Below, piece after piece: positions 1 to 18,538 of a DNA stretch of 21,922 nucleotides (position 1 is its first letter; each line of letters begins with the position of its first letter). The notes under the pieces were generated by a model. The model had not been told where the DNA came from. It saw only the letters and a program-made list of their open reading frames with translations, and ran no database searches. The translations under genes were made by a program, and so were the position numbers. The stretch lies in contig SCKQ01000040.1 of assembly GCA_004124535.1 (NCBI GenBank), positions 1 to 21,922 of the forward strand, given 5' to 3'. Source of the DNA: Fidelibacterota bacterium (GTDB lineage Bacteria; Marinisomatota; Marinisomatia; Marinisomatales; TCS55).

Positions 1-1
1 A

Positions 2-1735: not shown

Positions 1736-2291
1736 AGCAATAACAATTACTTTGCCTGATGTTGGGGATGTTTTGTTAGAACGGAGTTACCGTGCTAAAC
1801 ATATTAACATTTCCGTTAAGCCACCTTCAAAAGTGAGAGTGGCAGTACCCGTTGGTGTAGAATTTGAAAAAGCGCAGCGTATTGCTGAGCAAAGGACAGA
1901 CTGGATAAAAAAACAATTAAGAAAATATTCACAATCCAAAGCGAAGCGATTATTAAAAAAACCAGATGGTAATGAATTAATTGTGGTAAAAAAATATCTA
2001 AGAGATAGAGTTGATTATCTTGCGAAACGCCATGGATTTCAATATAATAATCTCGCTTTTAAGAGTATGATGACACGATGGGGGAGTTGCAGTCCAAAAA
2101 ATAATATTAGTCTGAATATTTTGATGGCACAGTTGTCAAAAGACATTCAAGATTACATTATTCTTCACGAATTATTGCATACAAGAATTAAAGACCACGG
2201 AAAAGCTTACTGGGCAGAACTAGACAGATTAACAGGTGACGCAAAGGGAATTCATAAAGAACTAAAGGAAAAGTATAATATTTATAATTAA
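1710..2291 (+). CDS. YgjP-type (DUF45, M48-like) zinc metallopeptidase
   Basis: A 193-residue protein of the YgjP/DUF45 family (SprT/WLM-like zincins). The signature is intact: RWGSCSPKNN at about residues 123-132, then HELLH at 153-157 with H153 and H157 as zinc ligands and E154 as the catalytic base, and a third ligand H163 in KDHGKAYW. The N-terminal half (about 15-75) is the usual small beta-rich lead-in with an RxxDWIKKQ-like helix. The start codon lies inside the end of hsdR (26-base overlap), so the two are probably translated together. Such peptidases are often encoded next to type I restriction operons; a role in turning over the restriction enzyme is plausible but unproven. The family assignment is firm; the substrate is unknown. 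Confidence 0.9.
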   Translation: MWSSISVAEAITITLPDVGDVLLERSYRAKHINISVKPPSKVRVAVPVGVEFEKAQRIAEQRTDWIKKQLRKYSQSKAKRLLKKPDGNELIVVKKYLRDRVDYLAKRHGFQYNNLAFKSMMTRWGSCSPKNNISLNILMAQLSKDIQDYIILHELLHTRIKDHGKAYWAELDRLTGDAKGIHKELKEKYNIYN

Positions 2292-2343: not shown

Positions 2344-2405
2344 CTCCACGCATTAGCGGGTTTTTTGTTTATAGACATTTAGGACTGGCAAGGTGTAAAA
2401 TTGCT
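2344..2405 (+). repeat. Intergenic terminator-promoter repeat, copy A
   Basis: First of eight related copies. It has an imperfect hairpin (CGC-ATTA-GCG core, arms extended with one mismatch) and six T residues (2361-2366), then GTTTATAGACATTTAGG, then GACTGGCAAGGTGTAAAATTGC. The hairpin can end transcription from the restriction operon, and the second half holds a promoter for the large secreted protein. Confidence 0.8.
2372..2401 (+). promoter_or_regulatory. Predicted sigma70-like promoter in repeat A
   Basis: TAGACA (2372-2377) and TAAAAT (2396-2401) are separated by 18 bases, with TG immediately before the -10. The ATG at 2424 is 22 bases beyond the -10, so the transcript would have a leader of about 15 bases without a Shine-Dalgarno sequence. 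The same arrangement recurs in repeats B, D and E. Confidence 0.6.
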
Positions 2406-2423
2406 CTTCAAGTAAATAATAAA

Positions 2424-5400
2424 ATGAAAAAGACATTAATATTATTACCATTATTACTGATTGTCTCAATAGCAAATGGTGTAGATCTAATTGTCGATCA
2501 AAGCGCGCTTTCGCAATATGGGACGGATAACTACCTTTTGTTTGATGGATTCGGCGACGGCCCTAGCCACAGTGTAACAGGTGTCGATGAGGTCCATCTA
2601 TGGAATGGAGAAGAAGAACCGCCTGACAATGCACCCACAGACTGGATCAATTATACCCAGGAAGCATTAGTCTATATGGACACATATGTGGCAGATGGTG
2701 CTACAGCCCATCATCGCGAAATCATGGGTAATGGCTGGCCGGGTGTCGGCGGTAATAGCTCGCAAAGGCCACCATCAATATCGATTCATTATGGCAACCA
2801 GATTAGATATGGATTTGGATTTGGGGTGGGCACTCAGGGAGCACGTGAAATAGTTGAGGGAACAGAAATACAACAAGAAACATGGCAACATATAGCCGTT
2901 ACGTTTGATGGTGAAACTTTAAAATTATATGTAAATGGTGAACTGGCACAAAGTGACAATCACGCAGGAGAGACTCCAGTCGCAGTACCGGTAAAAATGC
3001 TAGGCTCATCTTTCCGGGGAAAAATGGATGAGGTCCGAATGTGGAATGTGGCCAGGACCCAGGAACAGATTCAGGCAGCAGTGAATGATACTTTGAGTTT
3101 AGATGACAGAGAAGGACTGGTATCCTATTTTACAATGGATCTCAATGAAGATTGGAAGTTAATTGATAAAAGCGGAACTGTTGATCCTATTGGAATTTTT
3201 CCTGGGGACGTCCACGATGACTTTGATAATAATGAGATTTTACAAGAATATTATTCTGATGATTGTCCTAATGGACCCGATGGAAGCACCAATTGCCCAT
3301 ATCCCACCATCCGCAGTGCGATGGATGATGCACAGCCCGGGGACCGTATTTATATCAAGGGAGGGAGATATAATGAGCTTCTCAACAAATATCGGTTTAA
3401 TGGTTTTGATTGGCCTACTGGTTCAGTAGCTGCTCCAACAATCACTTTTGAAGGGTATCCCGGTGAAGATGTGAGGATCGATGGTACTGTACCCATTAAT
3501 GCAGAGTGGGAGTATCATGAAAATGGTATATGGAAAGCGGTTCTGGATATGGATGCCGTTTCAAAACATATCTTGAGGCCGGTTGATACCCTCTACAGTG
3601 TGTTTGTGGATGACCGGTATATGATTCCTGCTCTTCCCTTTAATATAAAAAATCCTACCGATCCCACCACCGGTAATCCAATGAACCCTGAGCCGAATAC
3701 TGTTTGGGAAAATATTGGAAAAAATCCTTTCTTATATAGCCCAGATAGTTCCGATGCATGGCCGTATTTAGACTCCCCGGCCTATCCTAATGGCATTGAT
3801 TATTATTTACCTGGGGAATATGCAAATTTAGATACAGTGGAAGAGTGGTCATTTAATGCTAGCACGAGCACCTTATACATCTACCCAGGTGAAAATTTCA
3901 ACTTTGCATCCCCAAATGTCCGGGTAAGGGTGAGGGTAATAAATATAAATTTTTTAGACTCGGATAATCTTGAATTCAGAAATATCCATTTTTTTGCCGG
4001 CGCACAAATTTTCAGTAATTGCAATTATAGGACTATGGAAGATTGCAGATTTTCATTCGGTGCGTTCTTTGGCGCAGAATCCAAGATAAACACTGGCAAC
4101 AGTAATGGTTACAGTGACCATATGACCATTAGAAATTGTATCTTCGAGTATAGCAATGGCCGATCTCCTTTTTGGGGTATTGGCCATAGATCAACCGTTG
4201 AAAATGTTCTAGTCAGATATAATGATTGGTTTCATGGTTCTGCTAACTATATAGGTGGAGACCATGCAGGCCCTGCATACTATCGTTATCTTACAGTAGA
4301 GAATAGCACCAATGCCGGTCTCTGGCCAGGAAGGGGTGCTTTGGTAGAATATAGCCGCTTTGAAAATCTATATGATGGCGTAGACGGCAGTGGCATTCAA
4401 CGAAATGGAGCGAATGCTGAATATAGCACAACGCGTTACTCGTGGATCATAAATATGCCGGGTTTGAATGGTATGCGGTTTAATAGTGCCTGCGGCGGCT
4501 CTGAAGGAGATGTGCATCATGTTGTTGCCATAGGTGCCGGTCGTGGTATGAAACTGAAAGGTGACTATCATGAAGTGTACCATGTTACTGCATACGATAA
4601 TAGGAGGAACGATATCTCTCTTGGATGGGGTAAGTATTGTGGTCCGGATAGGGGAGGGGCTTCTGAACCTGGGAATCTTAACTCCAGAATCCTTAACAGT
4701 ATTGCAGAAAGCTCATTGGATTGTAGCTCACCCGACTGCAAGCCCACAGCAGGCCTGACGGAAGCTGATTCCCTTATTGAAGACATTTTGAATTATGAAA
4801 CATTTGCAGCTTCGGGCATCTGGTATGGTCGATTTTTGAGGCGTTGTGTGTCTAATTGGTGCTCTTACTTTCCTGCACCGCAAATTGAACTGGCAGCCCC
4901 CTGGTATGCCTGGCATGCTGAATCTGAAGAAACTCTTATGGAAGAGTTTGGTGAAGTACCATGGGATGACCAAAGGCAGAGTTATGATTTTCGCCCCAAG
5001 AAAGGATCTAATTTGATTGATGCTGGCGTGATAGTGCCAGGAATCAATGATGGTTTGGATAGTCGCGACAATGCCCCAAGTCATGGCCTTTGGCTGGATA
5101 GCCGTCCGGATGAACCATGGCTGGGAGTATACAATCCAGTTGGTGCGGATTTTAATCACCCGCCTACGTATCCTGGACAGAACCGCAGGTTTGTAGGAGC
5201 TGCGCCCGACATTGGCGCCTATGAATATGGCGATTCCGTCTACTGGATCCCGGGATACAGGTATCCTTATCCCAGTGTTCCCATACCCAATGATAATGCA
5301 ATGGATGTTCCCATAGATTACAGTGTAGTCTGGAATTATCCCTATAAAAAGGATTATACCGGCACAACGGCGACAGTTACTTTAAGCGGGCCCGGCGTAA

Positions 5401-6761
5401 ACAGAACTGAGACTTTTCAGTATCCAAATAATGTGCTTTTCCAAACGTTTAAACCGGGCGGGACCTACACCTGGTCCGTTTCGGTGGACGGCATCAGTGG
5501 GGGCAACTGGACTTTCACGGTCGCTGATAAAATGTATCCCACGAATGATCGATCAATAGATACAGTGGCTGTAGATAGTGCCCTCATTCCATTTATCCAC
5601 ATTGATGAATTTCATGGGGAAACCATTCTGAGAGTGAAGAAAAATAATTTGGCCTTTTTACGTTTTGATATTCCAACATCTCTCAATTACAGCTGCACCA
5701 TTCATTTAAACTTAGTCCCGCAAAACGTTTCACTAGCTGAAGGTGGCGGCATCATTCTTTACGCATTTGATTCGGACTGGGGAGAAAGATTGACTGATGA
5801 AAATAACATAGGCATTATTGATCATAGTTTATTAACACCGTTAGATACGCTGTATGCCTTGGAGCCGGAAACCCCGGTATCTTTCGATTTAACTGATAAT
5901 ATTAATTCCGCTTGTAGCGATCACTCTTTTGCTTTGGGCGTTTTGGATTCTACAGATAACGTAACTTTTTACAGTAAAGAAAAAGAATATGATCAAAGGG
6001 CTAATAACTATGCCCCCCGAATGAATCTTTGGCCCAGTCTTTCTTTTCAGGAATGTATTTATACTGTTCTACCATCAGTTTACCCTGGTGATACGGACAA
6101 CAATGGAGTTGTGAATGAATTTGATATTCTGCCTTTAGCCACTTATTTTTACCAAACCGGCCCACAACGTTGTACAGCTGGTTATGGCTGGTTACCGTCG
6201 CCTTTTGACTCTCTCTGGGTATTGAATTCTGCTGCCACATATGCCGATGCCAACGGAGACGGTATTATTGATGAGAGTGATTTATTCGGGATCGCGCTTA
6301 ACTGGGGCAAGAGCCATGGGGACCGTTCGGACAATTTTGTAATTGATCCAGGTGACAGTACATTGGTTACCCTACATAAACCTGCACTTGAAGAATTATA
6401 CCAGGCATTGGGTGGAGATGGTGAGCCGGCACGGAAGATGAGATCACTTTTGGAAAGAATTTTAGGCATGGCAAACATACCTGATAAATTCTCTCTGTAT
6501 CAGAACTATCCCAACCCTTTCAACCCCATCACTACAATCAGATACGATCTTCCAGAACAGAGTCACGTAAATATTGTCATTTATGATATGCTGGGTAGAG
6601 AAGTAACTCACCTTGTCAACGCCACCTTGGAAGCCGGCTACAGGTCAATACAATGGAATTCTACCAATAGTTTTGGCAAGCCCGTAAGTGCGGGAGTCTA
6701 CATCTACCGGATACAGGCTGGGAAATTCATGCAGGCCAGGAAGATGGTGCTGTTGAAATGA
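2424..6761 (+). CDS. Large secreted beta-helix protein with LamG, dockerin and T9SS sorting tail
   Basis: A 1445-residue exported protein. In order: signal peptide (1-19, ends SIANG); a LamG/concanavalin-like domain (about 30-240, with WQHIAVTF at 154 and the MWNVARTQEQI ending typical of LamG at about 206); a right-handed beta-helix region opening with YPTIRSAMDDAQPGDRIYIK (about 293) and running to about 860; an Ig-like stretch; a DNRLRE-like beta domain (about 1040-1190); a dockerin-type pair of calcium loops (GDTDNNG at about 1222, DANGDGIIDESD at about 1274); and a type IX sorting domain from about 1356 (LYQNYPNPFNP, then AGVYIYRIQAG, ending KMVLLK). Beta-helices of this type usually bind or cleave polysaccharide; no specific catalytic site could be assigned. 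It lies 25 bases upstream of a cohesin-bearing lipoprotein gene, suggesting a binding pair. Confidence 0.88.
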   Translation: MKKTLILLPLLLIVSIANGVDLIVDQSALSQYGTDNYLLFDGFGDGPSHSVTGVDEVHLWNGEEEPPDNAPTDWINYTQEALVYMDTYVADGATAHHREIMGNGWPGVGGNSSQRPPSISIHYGNQIRYGFGFGVGTQGAREIVEGTEIQQETWQHIAVTFDGETLKLYVNGELAQSDNHAGETPVAVPVKMLGSSFRGKMDEVRMWNVARTQEQIQAAVNDTLSLDDREGLVSYFTMDLNEDWKLIDKSGTVDPIGIFPGDVHDDFDNNEILQEYYSDDCPNGPDGSTNCPYPTIRSAMDDAQPGDRIYIKGGRYNELLNKYRFNGFDWPTGSVAAPTITFEGYPGEDVRIDGTVPINAEWEYHENGIWKAVLDMDAVSKHILRPVDTLYSVFVDDRYMIPALPFNIKNPTDPTTGNPMNPEPNTVWENIGKNPFLYSPDSSDAWPYLDSPAYPNGIDYYLPGEYANLDTVEEWSFNASTSTLYIYPGENFNFASPNVRVRVRVININFLDSDNLEFRNIHFFAGAQIFSNCNYRTMEDCRFSFGAFFGAESKINTGNSNGYSDHMTIRNCIFEYSNGRSPFWGIGHRSTVENVLVRYNDWFHGSANYIGGDHAGPAYYRYLTVENSTNAGLWPGRGALVEYSRFENLYDGVDGSGIQRNGANAEYSTTRYSWIINMPGLNGMRFNSACGGSEGDVHHVVAIGAGRGMKLKGDYHEVYHVTAYDNRRNDISLGWGKYCGPDRGGASEPGNLNSRILNSIAESSLDCSSPDCKPTAGLTEADSLIEDILNYETFAASGIWYGRFLRRCVSNWCSYFPAPQIELAAPWYAWHAESEETLMEEFGEVPWDDQRQSYDFRPKKGSNLIDAGVIVPGINDGLDSRDNAPSHGLWLDSRPDEPWLGVYNPVGADFNHPPTYPGQNRRFVGAAPDIGAYEYGDSVYWIPGYRYPYPSVPIPNDNAMDVPIDYSVVWNYPYKKDYTGTTATVTLSGPGVNRTETFQYPNNVLFQTFKPGGTYTWSVSVDGISGGNWTFTVADKMYPTNDRSIDTVAVDSALIPFIHIDEFHGETILRVKKNNLAFLRFDIPTSLNYSCTIHLNLVPQNVSLAEGGGIILYAFDSDWGERLTDENNIGIIDHSLLTPLDTLYALEPETPVSFDLTDNINSACSDHSFALGVLDSTDNVTFYSKEKEYDQRANNYAPRMNLWPSLSFQECIYTVLPSVYPGDTDNNGVVNEFDILPLATYFYQTGPQRCTAGYGWLPSPFDSLWVLNSAATYADANGDGIIDESDLFGIALNWGKSHGDRSDNFVIDPGDSTLVTLHKPALEELYQALGGDGEPARKMRSLLERILGMANIPDKFSLYQNYPNPFNPITTIRYDLPEQSHVNIVIYDMLGREVTHLVNATLEAGYRSIQWNSTNSFGKPVSAGVYIYRIQAGKFMQARKMVLLK

Positions 6762-6786
6762 TAAAATTCAAGGAAGGAATGGAAAG

Positions 6787-7563
6787 GTGTTAAAGAAAAA
6801 CACAATATTCATTTTGTTCTTTGGTGTAATATTAACCAACTGTGGGCTTTTTGATAATGAGGATGAATCAATCGATAGCCCTATTGCCGCATTCGAAGCT
6901 GAACCTGCAGAAGGTTATGTTCCGTTGACAGTGACATTTACTAATAAATCTGATCCTGGCACAGGTAGTAATGTTGAGTACTTTTGGGATTTCGGTGATG
7001 GTGGTACAACAACAGCGGAGAATCCAGTTCATACTTTCACTGATGTCGGGTTTTTTTCCGTTACGTTGACAACTACAACAACTCATGGCAGTGATATTTC
7101 TGACCCGCGAGTGATTACAGTAAATACTACGGTAAATCCTCCAGTTTTGTTATTGTCATCCAGTTCTTCTTCAATAACAGTTGGCGGATCAACATCAATA
7201 TCACTGGAAATAACTGATTTGGTGATTTCCGTTTTTGGCGTCGAAATGCAGATAAGTTACAATGCAAGTGTTGTTGAGGTAGACACTTTAAGTTTTGTGC
7301 AGGGATCTTATTTTGGGACTAATGCAATTTCACTGTTTCAAATAGTGGATGATAAAATACATCTTTCGATAAGTGCAATTCATGGTGATGCCATGGTAAA
7401 TGGCACCGGTCAATTAGCTGCGTTTGAAGTAACCGGGCTTTCTTCAGGAACGAGTACATTTACAATTATACCTGAAGAGCTTCATTTTATTGATGATAAC
7501 GGAAATGAGGTGGATATCACGGATTATTTAGAAGTGAGAGATTTAACGGTTACCGTCCCATAA
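6787..7563 (+). CDS. PKD- and cohesin-domain lipoprotein
   Basis: A 258-residue lipoprotein. It starts with GTG at 6787, supported by AGGAAGGA at 6771-6778 (8-base spacing). The signal peptide ends in LTNC, with C19 as the lipidated residue, followed by an acidic stretch. Residues 30-112 form a PKD domain with the hallmark WDFGDG at 67-72 and NPVHTFTDVG after it. From about 120 to the end is a cohesin-like fold: SITVGGSTSISLEI, an FGVEMQISYNASVVEV segment, and AAFEVTGLSSGTSTFTI. Cohesins bind dockerins, and the gene directly upstream encodes a dockerin, so this may be the membrane-anchored receptor for that protein. The promoter is probably shared with the upstream gene. The PKD call is firm; cohesin is likely; the partnership is inferred. 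Confidence 0.85.
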   Translation: MLKKNTIFILFFGVILTNCGLFDNEDESIDSPIAAFEAEPAEGYVPLTVTFTNKSDPGTGSNVEYFWDFGDGGTTTAENPVHTFTDVGFFSVTLTTTTTHGSDISDPRVITVNTTVNPPVLLLSSSSSSITVGGSTSISLEITDLVISVFGVEMQISYNASVVEVDTLSFVQGSYFGTNAISLFQIVDDKIHLSISAIHGDAMVNGTGQLAAFEVTGLSSGTSTFTIIPEELHFIDDNGNEVDITDYLEVRDLTVTVP

Positions 7564-7582
7564 TCCAATGAAATGCCACCAA

Positions 7583-7651
7583 TTTATATCTAGATATCAG
7601 ATACAGGCTGGGGGATACATTAGCACTAAAAAGATGGTACTGTTGAAATAG
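7583..7651 (+). pseudogene. Remnant of a T9SS sorting tail
   Basis: After the cohesin gene stop, one frame (7595-7651) reads YQIQAGGYISTKKMVLLK and then a stop, which is the very end of a type IX sorting domain. At DNA level it matches the end of the large secreted protein (GATACAGGCTGGG, then AAGATGGT-CTGTTGAAAT). Removing the four bases GATA at about 7592-7596 would join it to an upstream TATATCTA and restore the expected YIYQIQAG. It is therefore a decayed tail of a lost gene, or of an earlier, longer form of the cohesin gene, whose frame differs by one base. Confidence 0.65.
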
Positions 7652-7676
7652 ATTAATTAATTAGGTAAACATCAAG

Positions 7677-7700
7677 CCCTGCCCAGTAGCGGGGTTTTTT
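7677..7700 (+). terminator. Rho-independent terminator in repeat B
   Basis: CCCTGC (7677-7682) pairs with GCGGGG (7689-7694) with one U-G wobble and the loop CCAGTA, followed directly by six T (7695-7700). Confidence 0.8.
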
Positions 7701-7705
7701 GTTTG

Positions 7706-7735
7706 TAGACATTTAGGACTGGCGGGGTGTAATAT
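7706..7735 (+). promoter_or_regulatory. Predicted promoter in repeat B, probably leaderless
   Basis: TAGACA (7706-7711), an 18-base spacer, TG and TAATAT (7730-7735). Only seven bases separate the -10 from the ATG at 7743, so the expected transcription start falls on or next to the start codon. There is no Shine-Dalgarno sequence. Confidence 0.65.
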
Positions 7736-7742
7736 TGCTATT

Positions 7743-8840
7743 ATGAAGCGATTTCTACCAATATTAATATTATTCTTAACTATTTTTTTGATGCAATGCG
7801 AAGATGAAACAGCTGATCAAGTTCAGCAGGAGAGCTCTTCTTCTATGACCCTGGATACACTTTTTGAAGGAAAGAGTGTTTATATCTCTGGTTTTTATTC
7901 TGATTCCATACAGATTACCCCGATAGCCTGTTACTGGAAGGACGGTGCGCGTATTGACCTCGATTACGGATGGGCGGAAGACATTAAGGTAGTAGATGGG
8001 GATATTTACGTGAGTGGCCGTTGGACTGATGAAACTGGCTGGAATGGATCATATTGTTATTGGGAAAATGGAGCAAGAACTGATCTGCAGGGTGGTACAC
8101 AAGATCTTGAGGTTGGAGCTATATTTGTTGATAATGGAGATGTGTATGTTGCCGGTACCCGAATAGTTGATGAGGGGCCTTTTGGAACTCCTATCGCCTG
8201 CTATTGGAAAAATGGTGCCCGAACTGATCTAACAACTTCCGAAATGGATGCTATGGCCTATGGTATTGGTGTTAATAATGGTGATGTGTATGTTACAGGC
8301 TGGAGGATACAGAACCATACGACACTCGCCTGCTATTGGAGAAATGGTGAGATAAATAACCTTCATGGTACAGCATACTTTGGTGAAGGACGTGATATTG
8401 CTTTTAAGGGTAATAATGTTTACATATCAGGGCATGTGGATAAAGCTTCCACTGATAGCTGGAATGCCTGTTACTGGAGGAATGGTAGTCGAGTAGATAT
8501 GGCGAGGAATACTTCTACTGGTGGTCATGTTATAGGTTCTGAAGCATTTGGTATTTTTATAGATGGTAGTGATATTTACCTTGCAGGATACAATATGATT
8601 GTGAATTTAAATAGTGTAGCGGTAAAATGGAGAAATGGCAATACACACGAACTAAGCGGCAACAGTGCTAATGTAGAATGGCACCATTTATGGGATATTG
8701 CGGTGGAAGAGGGTATAAAAATTTCTGTGGGGTATTTTTCACCTGATATTTCAAATGAATACAATTACGATCTGGGCTTACCACAATTTCCAATTTATTA
8801 TGTAAACGGTAAGCGTTATCAATTAGAAGACAGTGAGTAA
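7743..8840 (+). CDS. Lipoprotein with seven YWxNG repeats, likely a beta-propeller
   Basis: A 365-residue lipoprotein of unknown role. The signal peptide MKRFLPILILFLTIFLMQC places the lipidated cysteine at 19, followed by EDETAD. The body from about residue 47 is seven tandem units of roughly 40-50 residues. Each has a strand like VYISG/VYVAG/VYVTG and, some 15-25 residues later, ACYWxNGxRxDL. Units one to five are clear, the sixth reads AVKWRNGNTHEL and the seventh is degenerate (IYYVNGKRYQL). Seven four-stranded units would fit a closed seven-bladed propeller, a ligand-binding scaffold; no catalytic residues are evident. The gene stands alone between repeats B and C. Its promoter and signal-peptide start resemble those of the gene at 10070. 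The lipoprotein call is firm; the fold is inferred. Confidence 0.8.
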   Translation: MKRFLPILILFLTIFLMQCEDETADQVQQESSSSMTLDTLFEGKSVYISGFYSDSIQITPIACYWKDGARIDLDYGWAEDIKVVDGDIYVSGRWTDETGWNGSYCYWENGARTDLQGGTQDLEVGAIFVDNGDVYVAGTRIVDEGPFGTPIACYWKNGARTDLTTSEMDAMAYGIGVNNGDVYVTGWRIQNHTTLACYWRNGEINNLHGTAYFGEGRDIAFKGNNVYISGHVDKASTDSWNACYWRNGSRVDMARNTSTGGHVIGSEAFGIFIDGSDIYLAGYNMIVNLNSVAVKWRNGNTHELSGNSANVEWHHLWDIAVEEGIKISVGYFSPDISNEYNYDLGLPQFPIYYVNGKRYQLEDSE

Positions 8841-8891
8841 CAGTTTGGGGATGCGACCGGCGTTTTTATAAAATAGCAGGTTGTTTTCATA

Positions 8892-8931
8892 GCCTCCTCA
8901 CGTGGGGTTTTTTGTTTATAGACATTTAGGT
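8892..8931 (+). repeat. Intergenic repeat, copy C (terminator and core only)
   Basis: Hairpin-like CCTCACGTGGGG, T6 (8908-8913) and GTTTATAGACATTTAGG are present, but the sequence diverges right after (TACACCAAG), so the -10 half of the promoter is absent. It ends the propeller lipoprotein transcript. The gene downstream starts 90 bases later with its own ribosome binding site. Confidence 0.75.
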
Positions 8932-9020
8932 ACACCAAGCACACCCTAAATAAAGTATTAATATCCTGTGTAAATTTTTGCCTGTAAAAAGGTATTATCG
9001 AAATAACAGAGGAGGTCGTT

Positions 9021-9290
9021 ATGAAAGATTTATTTCCAATATCTATCTTCACAATTATAGTTCTTTTCAGCATTTACCAAAATTTTAGAATATGGGAAAA
9101 GGTATCAGATGATAATCTAGTTACACATCAGGTGATTATTGAGAATAAAAAACTCATTAAACAATTAAAAATCGAACAAAAAGAACTAATACAACCGTTA
9201 GAAAAACAATTTGCTGATATTATCCAAAACCAAAAAATGATGATAATGACAATCGACGCAATTCGGTCAGATTTAATGTTTCTTAAATAG
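9021..9290 (+). CDS. Small membrane-anchored coiled-coil protein
   Basis: An 89-residue protein not recognised as a known family. Residues 4-20 are a single hydrophobic segment (LFPISIFTIIVLFSIY), and the rest is highly charged with heptad-like spacing (about 40-75, KKLIKQLKIEQKELIQPLEKQ), suggesting a coiled coil outside the membrane. A strong Shine-Dalgarno sequence, GAGGAGGT at 9010-9017, precedes the ATG with three intervening bases. This differs from its neighbours, whose starts lack such a site. It is flanked by repeats C and D. The coding call rests on the ribosome site and plausible topology. Confidence 0.65.
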   Translation: MKDLFPISIFTIIVLFSIYQNFRIWEKVSDDNLVTHQVIIENKKLIKQLKIEQKELIQPLEKQFADIIQNQKMMIMTIDAIRSDLMFLK

Positions 9291-9344
9291 ATTACAAAAT
9301 TAGAATGAAAAGACCAATCCAAAGGAATAGGATTTAAGCAAGAG

Positions 9345-9366
9345 CCCCGCAGTAGCGGGGTTTTTT
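9345..9366 (+). terminator. Rho-independent terminator in repeat D
   Basis: CCCCGC (9345-9350), loop AGTA, GCGGGG (9355-9360), then six T. The stem is perfect. Confidence 0.88.
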
Positions 9367-9371
9367 GTTTA

Positions 9372-9401
9372 TAGACATTTAGGACTGGTGGGGTGTAATA
9401 T
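9372..9401 (+). promoter_or_regulatory. Predicted promoter in repeat D
   Basis: TAGACA (9372-9377), 18 bases, TG and TAATAT (9396-9401). The ATG at 9411 is nine bases beyond the -10, leaving a leader of at most a few bases. A nearer ATG at 9403 opens only three codons before a stop. Confidence 0.62.
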
Positions 9402-9410
9402 TATGCTAGT

Positions 9411-9884
9411 ATGAGATTGTTCCTTGTTCAACATGGTAATGCGCTACCGAAGGATGTGGATCCGGAGCGGGGGCTGAGTGAGCGGGGAAAACAGGACGTT
9501 GCGAATGTGGCTGCGTTTTTAGCCAGAGGCAGCGTTCAGGTTGAACGGATCTTCCACAGCGGGAAGAAGCGGGCATGGGAGACTGCAGAGCTTTTCAGAG
9601 TGTGTCTGATAGGAGGTGTAAATTTTGATGAGCGAGACGGGATTGCGCCCCTTGACCCTGTTGTTGGTGTGGCGGAAGAAATCCAGAATCTAAGTATGGA
9701 CACAATGTTTGTTGGACATCTCCCGTTTATGGGCAAACTGGTGGCTCATCTGATCGCTGGTAATGAGGATATCAGTGTGGTATCTTTCACGCCGGGAACG
9801 GTTGTCTGTTTGGAGCGAGATGGCAATGATATATGGAGTGTAGCTTGGGTGGTAAGACCAGAATTGTTGAAGAGTTTAAGCTAA
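9411..9884 (+). CDS. sixA: SixA-like histidine phosphatase
   Basis: A 157-residue cytoplasmic protein of the histidine phosphatase (phosphoglycerate mutase-like) superfamily, SixA branch, which removes phosphate from phosphohistidine on signalling or phosphotransfer proteins. The N-terminus reads LVQHGNALPKDVDPERGLSE, with H8 as the expected phosphate acceptor. The canonical arginine of the RHG motif is glutamine here (Q7). The later conserved parts are present: HSGKKRAWETAEL (about 50-62) and VGHLPFMGKL with H103 as the second catalytic histidine. The length is normal for SixA. It is a single gene between repeats D and E. The family is clear; the Q7 change could alter activity or mark a known variant subfamily. 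Confidence 0.85.
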   Translation: MRLFLVQHGNALPKDVDPERGLSERGKQDVANVAAFLARGSVQVERIFHSGKKRAWETAELFRVCLIGGVNFDERDGIAPLDPVVGVAEEIQNLSMDTMFVGHLPFMGKLVAHLIAGNEDISVVSFTPGTVVCLERDGNDIWSVAWVVRPELLKSLS

Positions 9885-9900
9885 CCCCGACGTGTCGGGG
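9885..9900 (+). terminator. Hairpin after the SixA-like gene, without T tract
   Basis: CCCCGA-CGTG-TCGGGG forms a perfect six-base stem immediately after the stop codon. No T run follows, so it may stabilise the 3' end rather than terminate by itself. Confidence 0.5.
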
Positions 9901-9942
9901 AATCGACTTGTTAGATCTTAAAGTGAAGAGAGAAGTAGAGAT

Positions 9943-10035
9943 ATGAAACGACCTTTTGTATCGTGTTTCTTTATTTTTGTTGTCCTTTTCATAAGCTGTG
10001 CGGTCCAGCCGACTAGAGGGCTGTTTTGTCTATAG
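9943..10035 (+). pseudogene. Truncated lipoprotein gene, signal peptide only
   Basis: An ATG at 9943 opens MKRPFVSCFFIFVVLFISC, a convincing lipoprotein signal peptide with a cysteine at 19, then AVQPTRG. The frame then runs into repeat E and stops at the TAG inside CTATAG. It is therefore a lipoprotein head without a body, cut at the repeat border. The purine-rich GAGAGAAGTAGAG before the ATG could be a weak ribosome site. It could also be a tiny expressed lipopeptide of 30 residues. Confidence 0.5.
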
Positions 10036-10067
10036 CCATTTAGGACTCGTGGGGTGTAATATTGTCT
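10019..10067 (+). repeat. Intergenic repeat, copy E (promoter half)
   Basis: It keeps TTTTGTCTATAGCCATTTAGG and GACTCGTGGGGTGTAATATTG but lacks the hairpin: the sequence before it is the truncated lipoprotein. It is the most divergent copy in the -35 region yet has an intact -10. Confidence 0.78.
10033..10062 (+). promoter_or_regulatory. Predicted promoter in repeat E, probably leaderless
   Basis: TAGCCA (10033-10038), 18 bases, TG and TAATAT (10057-10062). The ATG at 10070 follows after seven bases, the same geometry as repeat B. Confidence 0.58.
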
Positions 10068-10069
10068 TA

Positions 10070-11182
10070 ATGAAGCGATTCCTAACTCTATTACTTATTC
10101 TACCATTACTGTTTTCTTGGTCATGTGAAGAAGATACAGCAGGCCCTGAGGCCGTAATCACATTCGAGAAAGATATTGGTCATGGGAAATTAGCTGTAAA
10201 ACAGACAAAGGATGGTGGGTACATTGTTGCTGGAGGTAATTCCGATGCTTGGCTGTTAAAAACGGATAAATATGGAAAGAAGGAATGGGAGAATACATAT
10301 AGTTTGGGCGCCTTTGGTAATAGTAGAGCTGTTATTCAAACCAGTGATGGTGGATATCTTTATGCAGGTTGGGAGGGAATAGTTAAAGCTAATTCAAATG
10401 GTGTAGAAGAATGGAAAAATGTAAGCCACGAAAATGGAGCGTATCCATATTATGAAGATGTAATTCAACATAGTAATGGGAATTATTATGCGGTAGGTGG
10501 GCCGGGAGCGGGTCAGGCTCAATTGGTTAAATTTAGTCAAACAGGAAGTGTGCTCACACGAAAATGGTATGGAGGGCAATGCGAAGACGATATATTTAGA
10601 TCTATTATTGAAACTCCTGATGAAATGTTGATTATTGTAGGAGAAAAATCTCATGGCAACCAGAGTTTCCCATGTGCTTTCAATTTCATGTATTATAAAG
10701 ACATTTGGATTGTAAAGACTAGAAAGAATGGTGGTGTCGAATGGGAGAAAACACATGGTGGTCCCTATATGGAAATGGCAGATGATATAGCTAGAATCGA
10801 ATCGGGTGGTTATATGTTAATTGGGAATAAATGTGATCATCTTTACGATATTAGCTCTTGCGGTCAAAGAGCAAAAGTTCTTGTCATGCAAATAGATGAA
10901 GAAGGGAATAACTTGAACCAAGAGCTTTTCTCAGGTTTAAATTGGATGGAGCGTATCCCATACTATTCAATTACGACGACTGATGGTGGTTTTGCTTGGG
11001 TGGCAGAACACAAGAATAATGGTACTTGGATTTATAAATCGAGACCAAATGAAGATACAACATATTTGTTCTCTAATGGATTTGGTGGATTTGAAATTAA
11101 CCAGACCACAGATGGTGGTTTTATCATTGGAACTTTGGGAGGTATTTTGATCAAAACCGATTCAGAATTATTTTATGAATAA
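10070..11182 (+). CDS. Lipoprotein with seven TxDGGY repeats, likely a beta-propeller
   Basis: A 370-residue lipoprotein of unknown function. The start at 10070 is preferred over an in-frame ATG at 9998 because it begins a proper signal peptide (MKRFLTLLLILPLLFSWSC, cysteine 19, then EEDTAG) and sits seven bases after the promoter; the upstream codons lie inside the repeat. The body contains seven spaced motifs: QTKDGGYIVAGG, QTSDGGYLYAGW, QHSNGNYYAVGG, ETPDEMLIIVGE, RIESGGYMLIGN, TTTDGGFAWVAE and QTTDGGFIIGTLG. Several are followed by a strand such as WLLKTDKYGKKEW or WIVKTRKNGGVEW. This pattern is known from secreted FCB proteins and fits a seven-bladed propeller. It stands alone between repeats E and F. 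Confidence 0.8.
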   Translation: MKRFLTLLLILPLLFSWSCEEDTAGPEAVITFEKDIGHGKLAVKQTKDGGYIVAGGNSDAWLLKTDKYGKKEWENTYSLGAFGNSRAVIQTSDGGYLYAGWEGIVKANSNGVEEWKNVSHENGAYPYYEDVIQHSNGNYYAVGGPGAGQAQLVKFSQTGSVLTRKWYGGQCEDDIFRSIIETPDEMLIIVGEKSHGNQSFPCAFNFMYYKDIWIVKTRKNGGVEWEKTHGGPYMEMADDIARIESGGYMLIGNKCDHLYDISSCGQRAKVLVMQIDEEGNNLNQELFSGLNWMERIPYYSITTTDGGFAWVAEHKNNGTWIYKSRPNEDTTYLFSNGFGGFEINQTTDGGFIIGTLGGILIKTDSELFYE

Positions 11183-11206
11183 GCATGTTTTGTTAGTTTA
11201 CTTATA

Positions 11207-11266
11207 GCCCCGCCCAGAAGCGAGGTTTTTTGTTTATTGATAATTAGGACTTGTTGTAGTTAATAG
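11207..11266 (+). repeat. Intergenic repeat, copy F (divergent)
   Basis: Hairpin, T6 (11226-11231), then GTTTATTGATAATTAGGACTTG. The promoter half is altered, but TTGATA (11237-11242) and TAATAG (11261-11266) keep the 18-base spacing. The next gene is on the opposite strand, so any transcript from this copy would be orphan and would meet a second terminator at once. Confidence 0.7.
11208..11231 (+). terminator. Rho-independent terminator in repeat F
   Basis: CCCCGC (11208-11213) pairs with GCGAGG (11220-11225) with one mismatch and the loop CCAGAA, followed by six T. Confidence 0.7.
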
Positions 11267-11298
11267 AAAAAACGTTACACATTGTAACGCTATTTTTT
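11266..11298. terminator. Bidirectional terminator
   Basis: CGTTACA (11273-11279), loop CAT, TGTAACG (11283-11289). The stem is flanked by GAAAAAA on the left and CTATTTTTT on the right, so it has a T tract when read on either strand. It can end the minus-strand lipoprotein transcript and stop read-through from repeat F. Confidence 0.78.
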
Positions 11299-11341
11299 GA
11301 TTTTTAGGTTGGCGGTGCTTCCCGAACCGGTCCGTACAGCT

Positions 11342-11725
11342 TTAGGGACCGTTTAACAGCAATACATCATCAATAAATTCGGTAACAAGGAGCAAATCCC
11401 TACTGGGTATTTTTACCAGTTCTCCATTTTCCAATCTAATGATGTAATATGCTCCTCCCGTCAACGAATATTCTCCATCCACTATGCCGCTTTGGCCTGT
11501 TAAATCAGCGTAAGTGTATTTTTTTCGGCCACTGATAGAGGCTGGGTTTTCTTTTAGTTCGTTTTTGGCTGCAATAAATCTCACATGTCTGCCGTCGTAT
11601 AATATATGATCTGGATCTACCTGGATAATACTGTCAGGCAGGATGGTGTCAGAAATAAAATACCTGCCGCATGCAGTAATGGATAAACATGCCGTCAAAA
11701 TAATAATAAAAGTAGGATAGTTCAC
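11342..11725 (-). CDS. Small lipoprotein of unknown function
   Basis: A 127-residue lipoprotein, the only convincing minus-strand gene in the window. The signal peptide ends SITAC, with the lipidated cysteine at 19. The mature part is hydrophilic, with a beta-rich look (YTYADLTGQSGIVDGEYSL, then YYIIRLENGELVKIPSRD), but no family is recognised. The likely start is GTG at 11725, with GGAG immediately before it; no ATG is available in frame before a stop. It lies between repeats F and G, with its own bidirectional terminator downstream. It may be a cassette inserted in reverse. Confidence 0.7.
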   Translation of the reverse strand: MNYPTFIIILTACLSITACGRYFISDTILPDSIIQVDPDHILYDGRHVRFIAAKNELKENPASISGRKKYTYADLTGQSGIVDGEYSLTGGAYYIIRLENGELVKIPSRDLLLVTEFIDDVLLLNGP

Positions 11726-11808
11726 TCCAGATTTTAACGGAACATTTTTTCATGTCGGAATCTTTTGTATAGAAAAAGTATGTTTTTAGCAAACCAGTCC
11801 GTCACCAT

Positions 11809-11850
11809 CCCGCCCATTAGCGAGGTTTTTTGTTTATAGACATTTAGGAG
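11809..11850 (+). repeat. Intergenic repeat, copy G
   Basis: Hairpin CCCGC-CCATTA-GCGAGG (one mismatch), T6 (11826-11831), then GTTTATAGACATTTAGG followed by AGGTAATTTTATACAAT, which no longer matches the common promoter half. On the plus strand there is no gene just upstream for this terminator to end. Confidence 0.78.
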
Positions 11851-11865
11851 GTAATTTTATACAAT
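11837..11865 (+). promoter_or_regulatory. Predicted promoter at repeat G
   Basis: TAGACA (11837-11842) and TACAAT (11860-11865) with a 17-base spacer. It drives the NmrA-like gene, whose TTG start at 11881 has AGGA at 11870-11873 as a possible ribosome site. Confidence 0.55.
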
Positions 11866-11880
11866 TATTAGGATGTTATT

Positions 11881-12825
11881 TTGACTAAGGAAAAACAGAT
11901 TCATACCGTAACAGGAGCTTTTGGATACTCCGGCAAGTACATTGCCCAGCGGCTTTTGGCTAAGGGGTATACCGTGCATACCCTGACAAATTCCACTGAC
12001 CGGCACAATCCCTTTGCCGATAAAATGACAGTACATCCATTTAATTTCGAACACCCCGAAAAATTGGCCGAATCCTTGCAAGGGGTATCGGTGCTATACA
12101 ATACTTACTGGGTCAGGTTTAATCACAAATTATTTACGCATGCCGATGCGGTCAAGAACACCCTGATTTTATTTGAGGCGGCAAAAAAAGCAGGGGTCGA
12201 GCGAATCGTTCATGTCAGCATTACCAATCCTGCTGCCGAGCCCGACCTCGAGTATTTTCAAGGCAAAGCCCATCTTGAAAAAAGCTTGGTGGAATCGGGC
12301 CTGTCATATGCAATTTTACGGCCGGCCGTACTCTTTGGAAAAGAGGATATTCTGATCAATAACATTGCCTGGGCCTTAAGACGATTTCCTATCTTTGGGG
12401 TATTTGGGGATGGTAATTATGGTATTCAGCCAATTTATGTTGATGACCTGGCAAAACTGGCCGTTGAGCAGGGAGAAATCAGAGAAAATAAGATCATCAA
12501 TGCTATCGGGCCTGAATCATTCACTTATAGAGAACTCGTCGAAGAAATTGGGGGAATCATTGAAAAAAATCGACCGGTCATAGCCACCCCTCCAGTCGTT
12601 GGTTATCTTGTGGCACTCATCACAGGCTGGTTCGTTGGTGATGTTTTTCTGACCTGGGATGAAATCAAAGGCTTAATGGCCGGCACGCTGGCCGTGGATA
12701 CACCCCCGACCGGCAGTACTAAATTGACAGCTTGGGCCAAAAAGCATGCAGATACTTTAGGCAGAGAATATACAAGTGAGTTAGCTCGCCGAAAAGATAG
12801 AGTAAAAGCGTATAGGTCGAACTAA
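11881..12825 (+). CDS. NmrA-like NAD(P)-binding protein (atypical short-chain dehydrogenase)
   Basis: A 314-residue cytoplasmic Rossmann-fold protein of the atypical/extended SDR group (NmrA/NDUFA9-like). The dinucleotide motif GAFGYSGKYIAQRLLAKG is at about 12-29. An acidic residue or small polar cluster after the second strand (TLTNSTDRHNP) probably sets cofactor choice. AAKKAGVERIVHVSITNP and ILRPAVLFG are the usual later core segments, and IQPIYVDDLAKL matches the C-terminal core of the group. The usual YxxxK active site is not clear (YFQGKAHLEKSL stands in its place), so it may be a redox sensor or an epimerase/reductase of unknown substrate. It starts with TTG because the ATG eight bases upstream is out of frame. 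It is a single gene between repeats G and H. Confidence 0.85.
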   Translation: MTKEKQIHTVTGAFGYSGKYIAQRLLAKGYTVHTLTNSTDRHNPFADKMTVHPFNFEHPEKLAESLQGVSVLYNTYWVRFNHKLFTHADAVKNTLILFEAAKKAGVERIVHVSITNPAAEPDLEYFQGKAHLEKSLVESGLSYAILRPAVLFGKEDILINNIAWALRRFPIFGVFGDGNYGIQPIYVDDLAKLAVEQGEIRENKIINAIGPESFTYRELVEEIGGIIEKNRPVIATPPVVGYLVALITGWFVGDVFLTWDEIKGLMAGTLAVDTPPTGSTKLTAWAKKHADTLGREYTSELARRKDRVKAYRSN

Positions 12826-12856
12826 GGCCCAGACCCCTTCGACCATGCCCAATCAA

Positions 12857-12906
12857 GCCCCATCCAGGGATTTTTTGTTTATAGACATTTAAGGCTGGCA
12901 GATATT
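12857..12906 (+). repeat. Intergenic repeat, copy H (last copy)
   Basis: Short hairpin CCCC-atcca-GGG, T6 (12871-12876), then GTTTATAGACATTTAAGGCTGGC. The -10 half is absent. It ends the NmrA-like gene and marks the right end of the repeat-bounded region; no copy is seen further downstream. Confidence 0.75.
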
Positions 12907-12999
12907 GAGTCTACACGGACATACTTCATTTAAAAGGATTATTGAAGTAGCTAAAAAATGAAGGTTAGTCTGGGTATCATTCCTTAATTTTTCCTGGTA

Positions 13000-13005
13000 T
13001 ATAAT
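13000..13005 (+). promoter_or_regulatory. Possible -10 box for the amidohydrolase operon
   Basis: A perfect TATAAT preceded by GGTA lies 27 bases before the ATG at 13033. No good -35 is visible at the usual distance. The 120 bases between repeat H and this site hold no gene; an eight-base inverted repeat (12924-12931 with 12956-12963) is of unknown meaning. Confidence 0.4.
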
Positions 13006-13032
13006 TAAAATTAAAATGTACGGTTAATAATT

Positions 13033-16000
13033 ATGAGACCAAGACTTTCAACAACTTTAATTTTTCTAGTATCTATTTGCTTTATTAATATTGTGAACGG
13101 TCAGGTGAAACCTGTTGATGCTGGCCAGACTATTCACCATAAAACGCCAAAAGTATTTCTACTAAAAGGCGCTACTATTATTCCTGAACCGGGAAAAGTT
13201 ATTGCGGAAGGTGACATAGTAATTCGTGATGGTCTGATCGAGTCAGTCGGGAAAAATGTAGAACACCCCGCAGATGCTTATGAAATCGACCTTTCAGGAA
13301 AACACGTTTACCCAGGATTTATTGAGCCTTATTTTATCCAGGAAGAAGAAAAATCAATGGATCGACCCCGCGGGAATCAGCAGAAACCAAAACCTAAAGA
13401 AATAGCTACTGCAACTTCACATTGGAACCCCAAAGTTACACCGGATCGCCGTGTTCTTGAGAATTTCACCCTTGCAGAGAAACAAACTGAAAACTTAAGG
13501 AATCTGGGGTTTACCACAGCTCACGTTGTACCCAGTTCTGGTATCTTCCGCGGGCAATCAGCACTTATCCATCTTGGTGATTGGTCACCAAGTTCTATAA
13601 TCAAAGAAGCCGGACCCGCACAAAGTATAGGCTATGAGTATGGGTCTTGGAGCGATCCAGCATATCCAAATTCTCTGCTTGGGGCTGTAGCCCTCATCCG
13701 TCAGACCTTTTATGATGCGCAATGGTATGATGCTGCCCGGAAAGTATATAAACGATATCCGCAAAATAATGAACAACCGGAAGAAGACAGGGCTCTTACT
13801 GCCTTGAACATCCATTTAAAGAATAATAATGCTTTTTTGTTCGAAACAGGGGAAGAACTAGCGGCATTGAGAGCAGGGAAAATTGCCGAGGAATTTGATC
13901 TGAATTTATGGCTGAAGGGTAATGGGTATGAATACCGTAGACTTGAGGAGATCAAGGAGCTAAAAAGTTTTATTATCCTGCCGTTGAACTTTCCCAAAAA
14001 ACCAGACGTAGCTACCTGGGAAGCGGCTCTTCAGGTGTCCAATGAAGAACTCCGCCATTGGGATATTGCACCTGATAACGCACAGAGAATGGGGGAAAAA
14101 GGTATCCCCTTCGCACTAACAACAAGCGACCTAGATGATAAAAAATCTTTCCGCAAGAATCTATTGAGATCTGTGGAGCGAGGTTTTTCCAAAGATGATG
14201 CTCTTGCCAGCGTCACGGTTACACCAGCAAAATATCTTGGTCTTTCGGAAGTGCTGGGAACACTGGAAAAGGGCAAAATTGCGAACCTAATGGTTACCAA
14301 TGGAGATTATTTTGACCAAAAAACAACCATAGAATCCGTTTGGATAGAAGGTTTGGAATATTTGCTCAGATCCACGCCCGATGCAGATGCTCGTGGAACC
14401 TGGTTAATACAGTGGAGCTTTGGAGAAGAAGTCAGGAATGATTCTTTGAAGATTACTGGAGAACACGAAAAACCAAAAGGAAAACTGATTGCCGGTGAGG
14501 CAACGATTCCACTAAAGTCTATATCCCTAACTTCAAATAATTTATTCGGTTTCTCAATAAAAGGTGATTCTCTGAATCTCGCTGGGATAGTGCGATTCTC
14601 TGGAACAATTATTAATGACTATGCTGAGGGCCAGGGTCTTACACCCAATGATGAAACTATCACCTGGTCTGCACAACGGGTGGCTCCAGACAAAAATGAT
14701 AAAAAAGATAGAAAAAAGAAAACAACGGAAAAAGCCAGTACCCTTGTGGTTCAGTATCCAGAAGGTGCTTTCGGTCTTGAGGTAAAACCTACTCAGCCAG
14801 AAATAATACTGGTGAAAAATGCTACAATCTGGACGATGGGACCAAAAGGTATCTTGGAAAATAATGATCTGCTGGTAAAGAGCGGCAAGATTTGGGAAGT
14901 AGGAAAAGACCTGAGTATTCCACTCATGGTAAAAAGTTCCGTAGTTATCGATGCAAAGGGTAAGCACGTAACTCCTGGTATCATCGATTGTCACAGTCAC
15001 AGTGCTGCATTTTCTATCAATGAGGGCTCGCAATCTGTGACAGCGGAAGTAAGGATCCAGGATGTATTGAACAGTGATGATATTAATATCTACCGCCAAC
15101 TTGCCGGTGGACTGACAACGGCCAACATACTCCACGGATCTGCAAATTCAATTGGTGGACAAAATGCGGTTATCAAATTACGCTGGGGATTGCCTCCAGA
15201 TGGTATCCTGTTTGAAGGGGCACCAAAAGGGATCAAGTTTGCGTTGGGAGAAAACGTGAAACGCGAACGTAGCTGGGGTCGTTACCCAGAAACAAGAATG
15301 GGAGTTGAACAGGTTATCCGGGATGCATTTACCGCTGCAGTAGAATACAAAAATAATCTGGGTTCTCGAATGCGCGGAAAAGGCGGAAAGTTAATTCCAG
15401 TCCGCCGGGATCTTGAGTTGGATGCGCTTGTAGAAATCCTAAATCGTGAACGGTTGGTTCACTGTCACTCCTATCGTCAGGATGAAATTCTTATGCTGGT
15501 GAGAGTTGCACAAGATTTTGGCTTTAAAATCGGCACGTTTCAGCATGTACTTGAAGGGTATAAAATTGCAGAAGCCATCGCTGAGATAGGTGCAGGAGCC
15601 TCTACATTTTCAGATTGGTGGGCCTATAAGTATGAAGTGGTGGATGCTATCCCTTATAACGGTCCACTCATGGAAAAGGCTGGTGTTGTTGTTTCCTATA
15701 ATTCAGACAGTGGTGAGTTAGCCAGACGACTGAATACTGAAGCGGCCAAAGCTGCAAAATACGGACCCATGAGCAGGGCAGATGCTTTCAGATTTGTTAC
15801 CATCAATCCCGCCATACAATTGGGTATTGATAACAAAGTCGGTTCACTGGAAAAAGGAAAAGATGCCGATTTCGTTATTTGGAGCGGAGACCCCCTATCG
15901 ATGTACAGCGTTTGTGAGCAGACATGGATAGATGGTACCAAGTATTTCGATCTGGACCGGGATAGTGAAGTTAGACAAAAAGTTAAAGAAGAACGAAACC

Positions 16001-17444: not shown

Positions 17445-17560
17445 AACTTATTTCCAAAAATAGTGGACATTATATCCATTATACTAGACAGGAGTTAGTC
17501 ATCGAAGCCATCAAACAGGTTATTGATATGAACCACTAGGATGTTTGTTTACTCGATATA

Positions 17561-18439: not shown

Positions 18440-18538
18440 TAACCTGACCTAAATTTAAGTGGTATGCAAACCGAAGGGGGTGCACTCATTTTTATTTATA
18501 TCCGCCGGTTATTTGGAAAATTTGATTGTATTAATTAT

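What the first reader, a model, noticed from the sequence alone, without database searches (positions are those of the whole stretch)
2344..12906. Family of eight terminator-promoter repeats bounding single-gene cassettes
Eight intergenic copies, all in one orientation (about 2344, 7676, 8892, 9343, 10019, 11207, 11809, 12857), share GTTTATAGACATTTAGG or a close variant; seven have a hairpin and T6 just before it. Copies A, B, D and E continue with a conserved GACTGGNGGGGTGTAATAT that reads as TAGACA-N18-TAATAT. The spacer is conserved as well as the boxes, which a generic promoter does not need. None of these copies is seen outside 2.3-12.9 kb. The genes between them are unrelated, often single, and one is reversed. 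This looks like a mobile or recombining expression cassette array in which one 60-base unit ends one gene and starts the next. No recombinase is visible.
Basis: partly seen in the sequence, partly recalled or inferred. Interest (0 to 1): 0.85.

Follow-up and report, generated by a model that had tools for sequence, protein, structure and literature searches.

The report
Shuffling gene cassettes of marine bacteria
Uncultured marine bacteria of the phylum Marinimicrobia carry arrays of small gene packages, each joined to the next by a terminator-like and promoter-like junction, and these packages differ between relatives and recur almost unchanged in distant families, so they behave like a gene-swapping system although no enzyme for it has been found.

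Summary
The eight repeats are real (0.10 expected by chance) and belong to a larger system. A profile scan found 118 such elements: 8 in the window and 110 in fetched stretches of related genomes, none in the reversed control. The motif is patchy in the phylum: 21 of 245 genomes, no control hits. Homology between genomes breaks at the junctions: 50 of 110 alignment ends lie within 45 bp of one, 6.5% expected; 60 do not. Whole cassettes are shared with different neighbours, some 94-99% identical between families whose rpoB DNA is about 68-71% identical. One locus holds 0.85 kb or 11 kb of cassettes between shared flanks. Exchange probably lies near TTTTG/TTT. It works like an integron array but fails the tested integron features. 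Closest in anatomy are the PeSLs of T4-like phages. The recombinase is unknown, homology-driven shuffling is not excluded, and promoter and terminator activity are inferred.

The parts
2346..2404 (+). Junction A: weak stem-loop + T6 + GTTTATAGACATTTAGGACTGG..GTGTAAAAT; left edge of the array
2367..7700 (+). Interval A-B: 1445-aa laminin-G-like protein with a C-terminal sorting domain (2424-6761) and 258-aa PKD protein (6787-7563)
   Evidence: 2408-8930 is 99.0% identical to G001 C38 (L059 9279-15800)
7674..7738 (+). Junction B: strong stem-loop + T6 + GTTTGTAGACATTTAGGACTGGCGGGGTGTAATATTGC
7701..8913 (+). Cassette B-C: 365-aa ORF 7743-8840, no Pfam match, lipoprotein-like start (my reading)
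   Evidence: shared with G001
8891..8930 (+). Junction C: identity with G001 is 97% upstream and stops here
8914..9366 (+). Cassette C-D: 89-aa ORF 9021-9290, no Pfam match
9343..9404 (+). Junction D: strongest stem-loop (-17.6 kcal/mol) + T6 + full class I 5' end
9367..10027 (+). Cassette D-E: 157-aa histidine-phosphatase-like gene 9411-9884, then the start of another lipoprotein-like gene that runs into junction E
10005..10065 (+). Junction E: T4 variant, GTCTATAGCCATTTAGGACTCG..GTGTAATATTG; stem-loop no better than shuffles
10028..11231 (+). Cassette E-F: 370-aa ORF 10070-11182, no Pfam match; 82% identical gene in G005 (L124 8276-7249)
11206..11250 (+). Junction F: most diverged core (3 mismatches), before a reversed gene
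11232..11831 (-). Cassette F-G: reversed 127-aa ORF 11342-11725, no Pfam match
11809..11850 (+). Junction G: right flank 98.5% identical to G001 C107, left flank unrelated
11832..12876 (+). Cassette G-H: 314-aa NAD-dependent epimerase/NmrA-like gene 11881-12825; whole cassette 98.6% identical in G001 (L071 2124-3198) with both neighbours different
12856..12895 (+). Junction H: right edge; stem-loop no better than shuffles; 12867-18458 is 97.6% identical to G001 C28 (L055) with a different left neighbour

Best explanation
The repeats are the junctions of a chromosomal mobile gene-cassette system of Neomarinimicrobiota. A cassette starts at about GTTT with its own promoter-like sequence, holds one or a few genes, and ends with a stem-loop and T-run. 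Cassettes line up head to tail in one direction. Shown in silico: cassette content differs between relatives and cassettes recur in other families, with many breakpoints in the junction. Inferred: exchange is conservative recombination at the short shared sequence around TTTTG/TTT, probably by a site-specific recombinase that I could not identify, with the stem-loop part of the site or a by-product of terminating the cassette. Also inferred: each junction terminates the upstream cassette and starts transcription of the next, so a cassette is expressed wherever it lands. I put the cassette exchange at about 0.9 and a dedicated site-specific recombinase at about 0.5.
For: 118 elements against 0 in the reversed control, on loci fetched because they held the motif. 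Stem-loop + T-run + GTTT 81 times against 3 in reversed sequence of the same loci. 255 of 263 junctions lie in the majority orientation of their locus. 50 of 110 ends of inter-genome matches fall within 45 bp of a junction, 6.5% expected. Five whole-cassette matches have both ends within 16 bp of a junction in both genomes: window/G001, G001/G041, G002/G122, G005/G002, G001/G005. G001/G041 is 98.7% over 1209 bp with rpoB DNA 67.7% identical. Same locus in G121 and G122: 0.85 kb against 11.0 kb between shared flanks. Left-shared class I pairs have no T-run mismatch in 14 of 14, while 4 of 10 right-shared pairs do. Position 5 of the core is genome-specific: A in 41 of 49 copies in G001, C in 21 of 24 in G005.
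Against: No recombinase is among the 20 protein clusters found near junctions in three or more genomes. 60 of 110 alignment ends are not near a junction. Some intervals hold many genes, up to 12.9 kb, partly because weaker junctions were missed. Several window stem-loops are weak. Right-shared pairs also differ inside the core (positions 3-12 in several), so the exchange point is only loosely bracketed. In G057 the core is joined inside an integrase gene at a shared TAGGACA, which looks like short-homology joining. The relatives are fragmented drafts, and the named ones are MAGs.
Confidence: 0.6

Rival explanations
1. Same cassettes, but shuffled without a dedicated enzyme: repeated terminator-promoter units give short homology for RecA or end-joining after DNA uptake, as proposed for PeSLs of T4-like phages.
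For: No candidate recombinase found. One junction joined within an integrase gene at TAGGACA. Breakpoints fall where sequences are identical, which homology alone would also give.
Against: In the G001/G041 cassette the sequence after the 3' junction is class I in one genome and not in the other, so the partners share little beyond the stem 3' arm and TTTTTTGTTT. One orientation per array, and precise two-sided whole-cassette matches between families.
Confidence: 0.32
2. A true integron array lacking its integrase (CALIN) with very diverged attC sites.
For: Layout AAAC-6-CCCCGC-loop-GCGGGG-6-GTTT resembles attC, the G/TT exchange point fits, and integrases with an insert that I recognise as integron-type (recalled) exist in the same family: G007, G008, G010, G014.
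Against: Fourth base is T, not R as in GTTRRRY. The upstream AAAC is only moderately conserved, C in 32% of 81. No integron-type integrase among the PF00589 matches of G001 (3; 90% complete) or G005 (3; 96%). No junction found in the five fetched loci of ~600-nt integrase matches, four of which carry the insert. Cassettes carry promoter- and terminator-like ends, unlike the usual integron cassette.
Confidence: 0.06
3. Ordinary conserved promoter and terminator, with gene differences due to other transfer.
For: The element does look like a terminator followed by a promoter.
Against: Patchy: 21 of 245 genomes. Breakpoints at the element. A recognisable, though the most diverged, core before the reversed gene.
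Confidence: 0.01
4. Metagenome assembly or binning chimeras at repeats.
For: The named relatives are MAGs; 26 of 110 elements lie within 500 bp of a contig end, 10.6 expected.
Against: Junctions also lie inside 20-80 kb contigs. Cassettes in different contexts recur across separate genomes. The G121/G122 locus has both flanks and the inserts on one contig in each.
Confidence: 0.03

Closest known systems
PeSL mobile regulatory cassettes of T4-like phages (Arbiol 2010; Comeau 2014; known to me from their titles and one passage in PMC4503421, and from recall)
   Same: A composite stem-loop and promoter motif between genes, linked to shuffling of the genes.
   Different: Here in bacterial genomes, with cargo that is not phage-like, tRNA-linked in some cases, cassettes crossing families. 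Whether the motifs are related was not tested, and the originals were not held.
Integron gene cassettes / CALIN (PMC8876359 passages; CALIN recalled)
   Same: One-direction arrays of exchangeable cassettes, boundary at a G/TT, stem-loop at the cassette 3' end.
   Different: No integron-type integrase found in G001 or G005, no GTTRRRY, weak upstream half-site, T-run terminator-like ends, and promoter-like cassette 5' ends.
dif modules of Acinetobacter plasmids (PMC13141974 passages)
   Same: Small modules shuffled at short sites.
   Different: Those sites are 28 bp, XerC site-6-XerD site, with alternating orientation (Table 1 there). The junction consensus lacks TTATGTTAA and junctions keep one orientation.
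tRNA-integrated islands with tyrosine integrase (tycheposons recalled; a search for the word listed no paper holding it)
   Same: Some arrays begin just after a tRNA gene or end at an integrase next to a tRNA.
   Different: The shuffling unit is the single cassette at its junction, not the island.

Membership tests
Integron / CALIN | Integron-type tyrosine integrase | tested here: not met
   G001: two Xer-type enzymes and one 413-aa integrase beside a tRNA. G005: two Xer-type enzymes and a 130-aa fragment on an array contig. Of 14 further array genomes, one (G136:C79) has a strong ~600-nt match of integron-type length, and G150:C216 a weak 588-nt one; neither was aligned. Drafts, so absence is not proof.
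Integron / CALIN | attC core GTTRRRY | tested here: not met
   Fourth base is a conserved T in class I, where the scan did not require it. In class II the scan itself required GTTT. Core definition.
Integron / CALIN | Paired upstream half-site RYYYAAC (recalled) | tested here: inconclusive
   AAAC upstream in part of the copies only; C at -7 in 32% of 81.
Integron / CALIN | One-direction array of exchangeable cassettes | tested here: met
PeSL | Composite stem-loop plus promoter between genes in a shuffled region | tested here: inconclusive
   Stem-loop, T-run and breakpoints shown; promoter by sequence only.
PeSL | Located in T4-like phage genomes | tested here: not met
   No match to one element in 50,697 phage records nor to one 24-mer in the viral contigs; the 25 commonest Pfam families of the cargo are not phage families.
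dif module | 28-bp XerC/XerD site with TTATGTTAA arm | tested here: not met
   Absent from the element consensus; site form.
Promoter-terminator unit | Transcript ends and starts at the junction | not testable with these tools
   No RNA data.

The most novel reading that the evidence does not exclude
A non-integron gene-cassette system native to marine Neomarinimicrobiota: an unidentified recombinase exchanges self-expressing cassettes at a terminator-type stem-loop/T-run/GTTT site, with a genome-specific base inside the exchange region acting as a compatibility tag, spreading metabolic, secreted and defence genes between families.
Probability: 0.35. Interest if true: 0.93.

Novelty: new variant of a known kind. 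Interest (0 to 1): 0.82.

Why it matters
Gene-cassette arrays outside integrons are rare (recalled). Here each cassette seems to bring its own promoter and terminator, which would let a gene work wherever it lands, without a platform promoter. It gives a concrete route for gene flow across families of an uncultured ocean phylum, and a defined site with which to look for the enzyme. In the held papers I found no description: Marinimicrobia + gene cassette + integron gave 0 papers, and none of the papers listed by the wider searches (up to 20 listed each, seen as titles and abstract starts) describes it; most subscription papers are not in that library.

Tried and rejected
Serine resolvases: a match in 1 of 6 array genomes, so not the general enzyme. 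A dif-like pattern gave about as many matches as its reversed control: uninformative. Repeats in three loci with or near ~600-nt integrase matches showed no attC-like family among those listed (one of the three, L195, turned out not to be integron-type). Rfam: nothing in the window; in three array loci a tRNA plus three weak matches below their gathering scores, two of them to a plastid UTR family. A k-mer search upstream of 144 genes outside class I elements did not show a -10/-35 motif, but turned up partial junctions, which led to class II. Class I start-codon spacing was not informative; in class II the ATG is 11 nt after the start of a TAnnT box in 12 of 43 scored copies, which suggests leaderless starts. 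I first took the class I motif as the whole site and dropped that. Pfam and PADLOC tables for 137 of 145 cassette proteins (four near-duplicates and four short ORFs left out, and one interval over 9 kb not used) show only the 25 commonest families, so a rare recombinase could be hidden. Blastp of ten recombinases against 836 proteins near junctions found four integrases or fragments plus one weak 72-aa match. Of the 20 clusters present in three or more genomes, none matches a recombinase family in Pfam; two have no match. The interval lengths used class I junctions only and so are overstated; with more junctions the median spacing of 86 intervals under 10 kb is 1.6 kb.
Full report
Observation. 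The window holds eight same-strand copies of GTTTATAGACATTTAGG, expected 0.10 by chance, in a 41-nt repeat family. Seven follow a T6 run. Stem-loops before them range from strong (7701, 9367) to no better than shuffles (10028, 12877). The window's own genome is not held. Of 21 stretches in the genome collection with an exact 24-base element, 20 are titled Marinimicrobia or Neomarinimicrobiota and one Gammaproteobacteria.

Scale. The nearest genome G001 has 54 hits to the 17-mer with 17 in the reversed control, and 45 to a 21-mer with none in the control; 19 of 61 relatives have the 21-mer. A 69-column profile, trained on the copies themselves, found 118 elements in the window (8) and 67 fetched loci (110) and none in reversed sequence; these loci were fetched because they held the motif or lay near it. 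Across the phylum, 21 of 245 genomes have the class I motif with no control hit. The left part plus GTTTNTRG occurs in 69 of 245 genomes with 4 control hits; the highest counts are G122 (31), G001 (29), G124 (28) and G151 (26). Presence is patchy even within families.

Anatomy. The highest information lies in GTTTnTAGACATTTAGGAC, more than in the putative -10. Further junctions share the stem-loop, T-run and GTTT and then continue differently; a second class reads GTTTGTGGGATGATGGGTAGATTTGG. Stem-loop + T4-8 + GTTT occurs 81 times in 0.98 Mb (43 of them class I) against 3 in reversed sequence, while seven other tetramers after the T-run occur 0-12 times. In loci with two or more junctions 255 of 263 keep the majority direction; six loci hold both. 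So the common part is the 3' end of one cassette plus GTTT, and the 17-mer is one class of 5' end.

Cassette exchange. Flank comparison gave 3 element pairs alike on both sides, 130 on the left only and 91 on the right only; many left-only pairs reflect a shared C-terminal sorting domain at gene ends and many right-only pairs only the motif itself, so I rely on the long matches. Window 2408-8930 is 99.0% identical to G001, then changes at junction C. The NmrA-like cassette 11832-12876 is 98.6% identical in G001 with both neighbours different. The right flank 12867-18458 is 97.6% identical with another left neighbour. Over 64 inter-genome matches of at least 250 bp and 80%, 50 of 110 internal ends lie within 45 bp of a junction in at least one genome, 6.5% expected; 60 do not, and 18 ends at sequence edges were set aside. 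Between families: G008/G130 98.9% over 795 bp, G001/G041 98.7% over 1209 bp, G001/G158 94.4% over 376 bp, G001/G130 94.1% over 1173 bp. rpoB DNA is 70.7%, 67.7% and 68.9% identical for G008/G130, G001/G041 and G001/G130; no rpoB match was found in G158. In G121 and G122 one locus has shared flanks on both sides and between them one interval of 0.85 kb or seven of 11.0 kb, each changing at the junction; the G122 upstream flank holds a further extra 1.9 kb with two junctions.

Exchange point. In 14 left-shared class I pairs (80% or more over 150 bases; several share the sorting domain) the T-run never differs; the first core difference is at position 2 in one pair and 5-18 in the rest. In 10 right-shared pairs differences reach the T-run (-3 to -5) in four. 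The rare bases T10 (G005/G002) and A16 (window/G001) are kept in one pair each, but other right-shared pairs also differ at core positions 3-12. That brackets exchange loosely, between the last Ts and about position 5. Position 5 itself differs in both kinds of pair and is genome-specific, as expected if it lies in a region that must match during strand exchange; this is inference.

Cargo and setting. Of 137 cassette proteins scanned, 13 carry a secretion sorting domain, four a cold-shock domain; single members are glycoside hydrolases, transporters and oxidoreductases, and a few give defence-model hits such as TIR and Pycsar. Six of 21 tRNA/tmRNA genes in 60 loci have a same-strand junction within 450 bp downstream. 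In two the tRNA's own terminator-like stem-loop is the left half. A 413-aa integrase (G001) and an integrase fragment (G002) lie directly before a tRNA-Gly called by ARAGORN; in G057 the integrase end and the start of a like tRNA reach the contig end, and in G124 a 370-aa integrase is followed by a tRNA-like stretch that ARAGORN did not call. A fragment also lies on a G005 array contig. These may move islands; nothing links them to single-cassette exchange.

Enzyme. G001 and G005 have two Xer-type recombinases each besides those, and no integron-type integrase. Four relatives with 0-3 class I elements do have one by its insert. No recombinase is among the 20 protein clusters near junctions in three or more genomes. 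The mechanism is therefore open between a dedicated unknown recombinase and short-homology shuffling.

Comparison. Integron cassettes are usually promoterless, recombine within GTTRRRY, and attC is not a T-rich terminator (PMC8876359 passages); this system differs on these points. dif modules differ in site and orientation (PMC13141974 passages). PeSLs match best in anatomy but are in phages (PMC4503421, one passage and its reference list). I file it as a new variant of a gene-cassette kind, and not as an integron.

Noticed in passing
window 9943-10027: The start of a lipoprotein-like gene (my reading of the sequence) runs straight into junction E; similar short gene starts lie just before junctions in G001 (L061) and L040.
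   Followed up: partly
L151 6806-6860 (G057): The class I core is joined inside a tyrosine integrase gene next to tRNA-Gly, sharing TAGGACA.
   Followed up: partly
L064 3518-4861, L128 15180-15566, L224 8205-9400: A tyrosine integrase or fragment directly before a tRNA gene on array contigs (tRNA called in L064 and L128 only); the L064 and L224 integrases are 24% identical.
   Followed up: partly
L065 5192-5270, window 11232-11300, L057 17341: Double junctions: a class I core followed within about 70 bp by a second TTTTTTGAT..TTAGG variant.
   Followed up: no
L226 6178, L223 521: A recurrent left end without the usual stem-loop, ACTGGTCATTT..GTAAG + TTTTTTGTTT.
   Followed up: no
L047 (NZNL01000056.1): The element near the contig end of a MAG labelled Gammaproteobacteria; transfer or misbinning not resolved.
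   Followed up: partly
window 1-2291: Type I restriction R subunit and a YgjP-like metallopeptidase flank the array on the left; a relative of the latter (72.7%) lies just after a junction in G002 (L130 610-50).
   Followed up: partly
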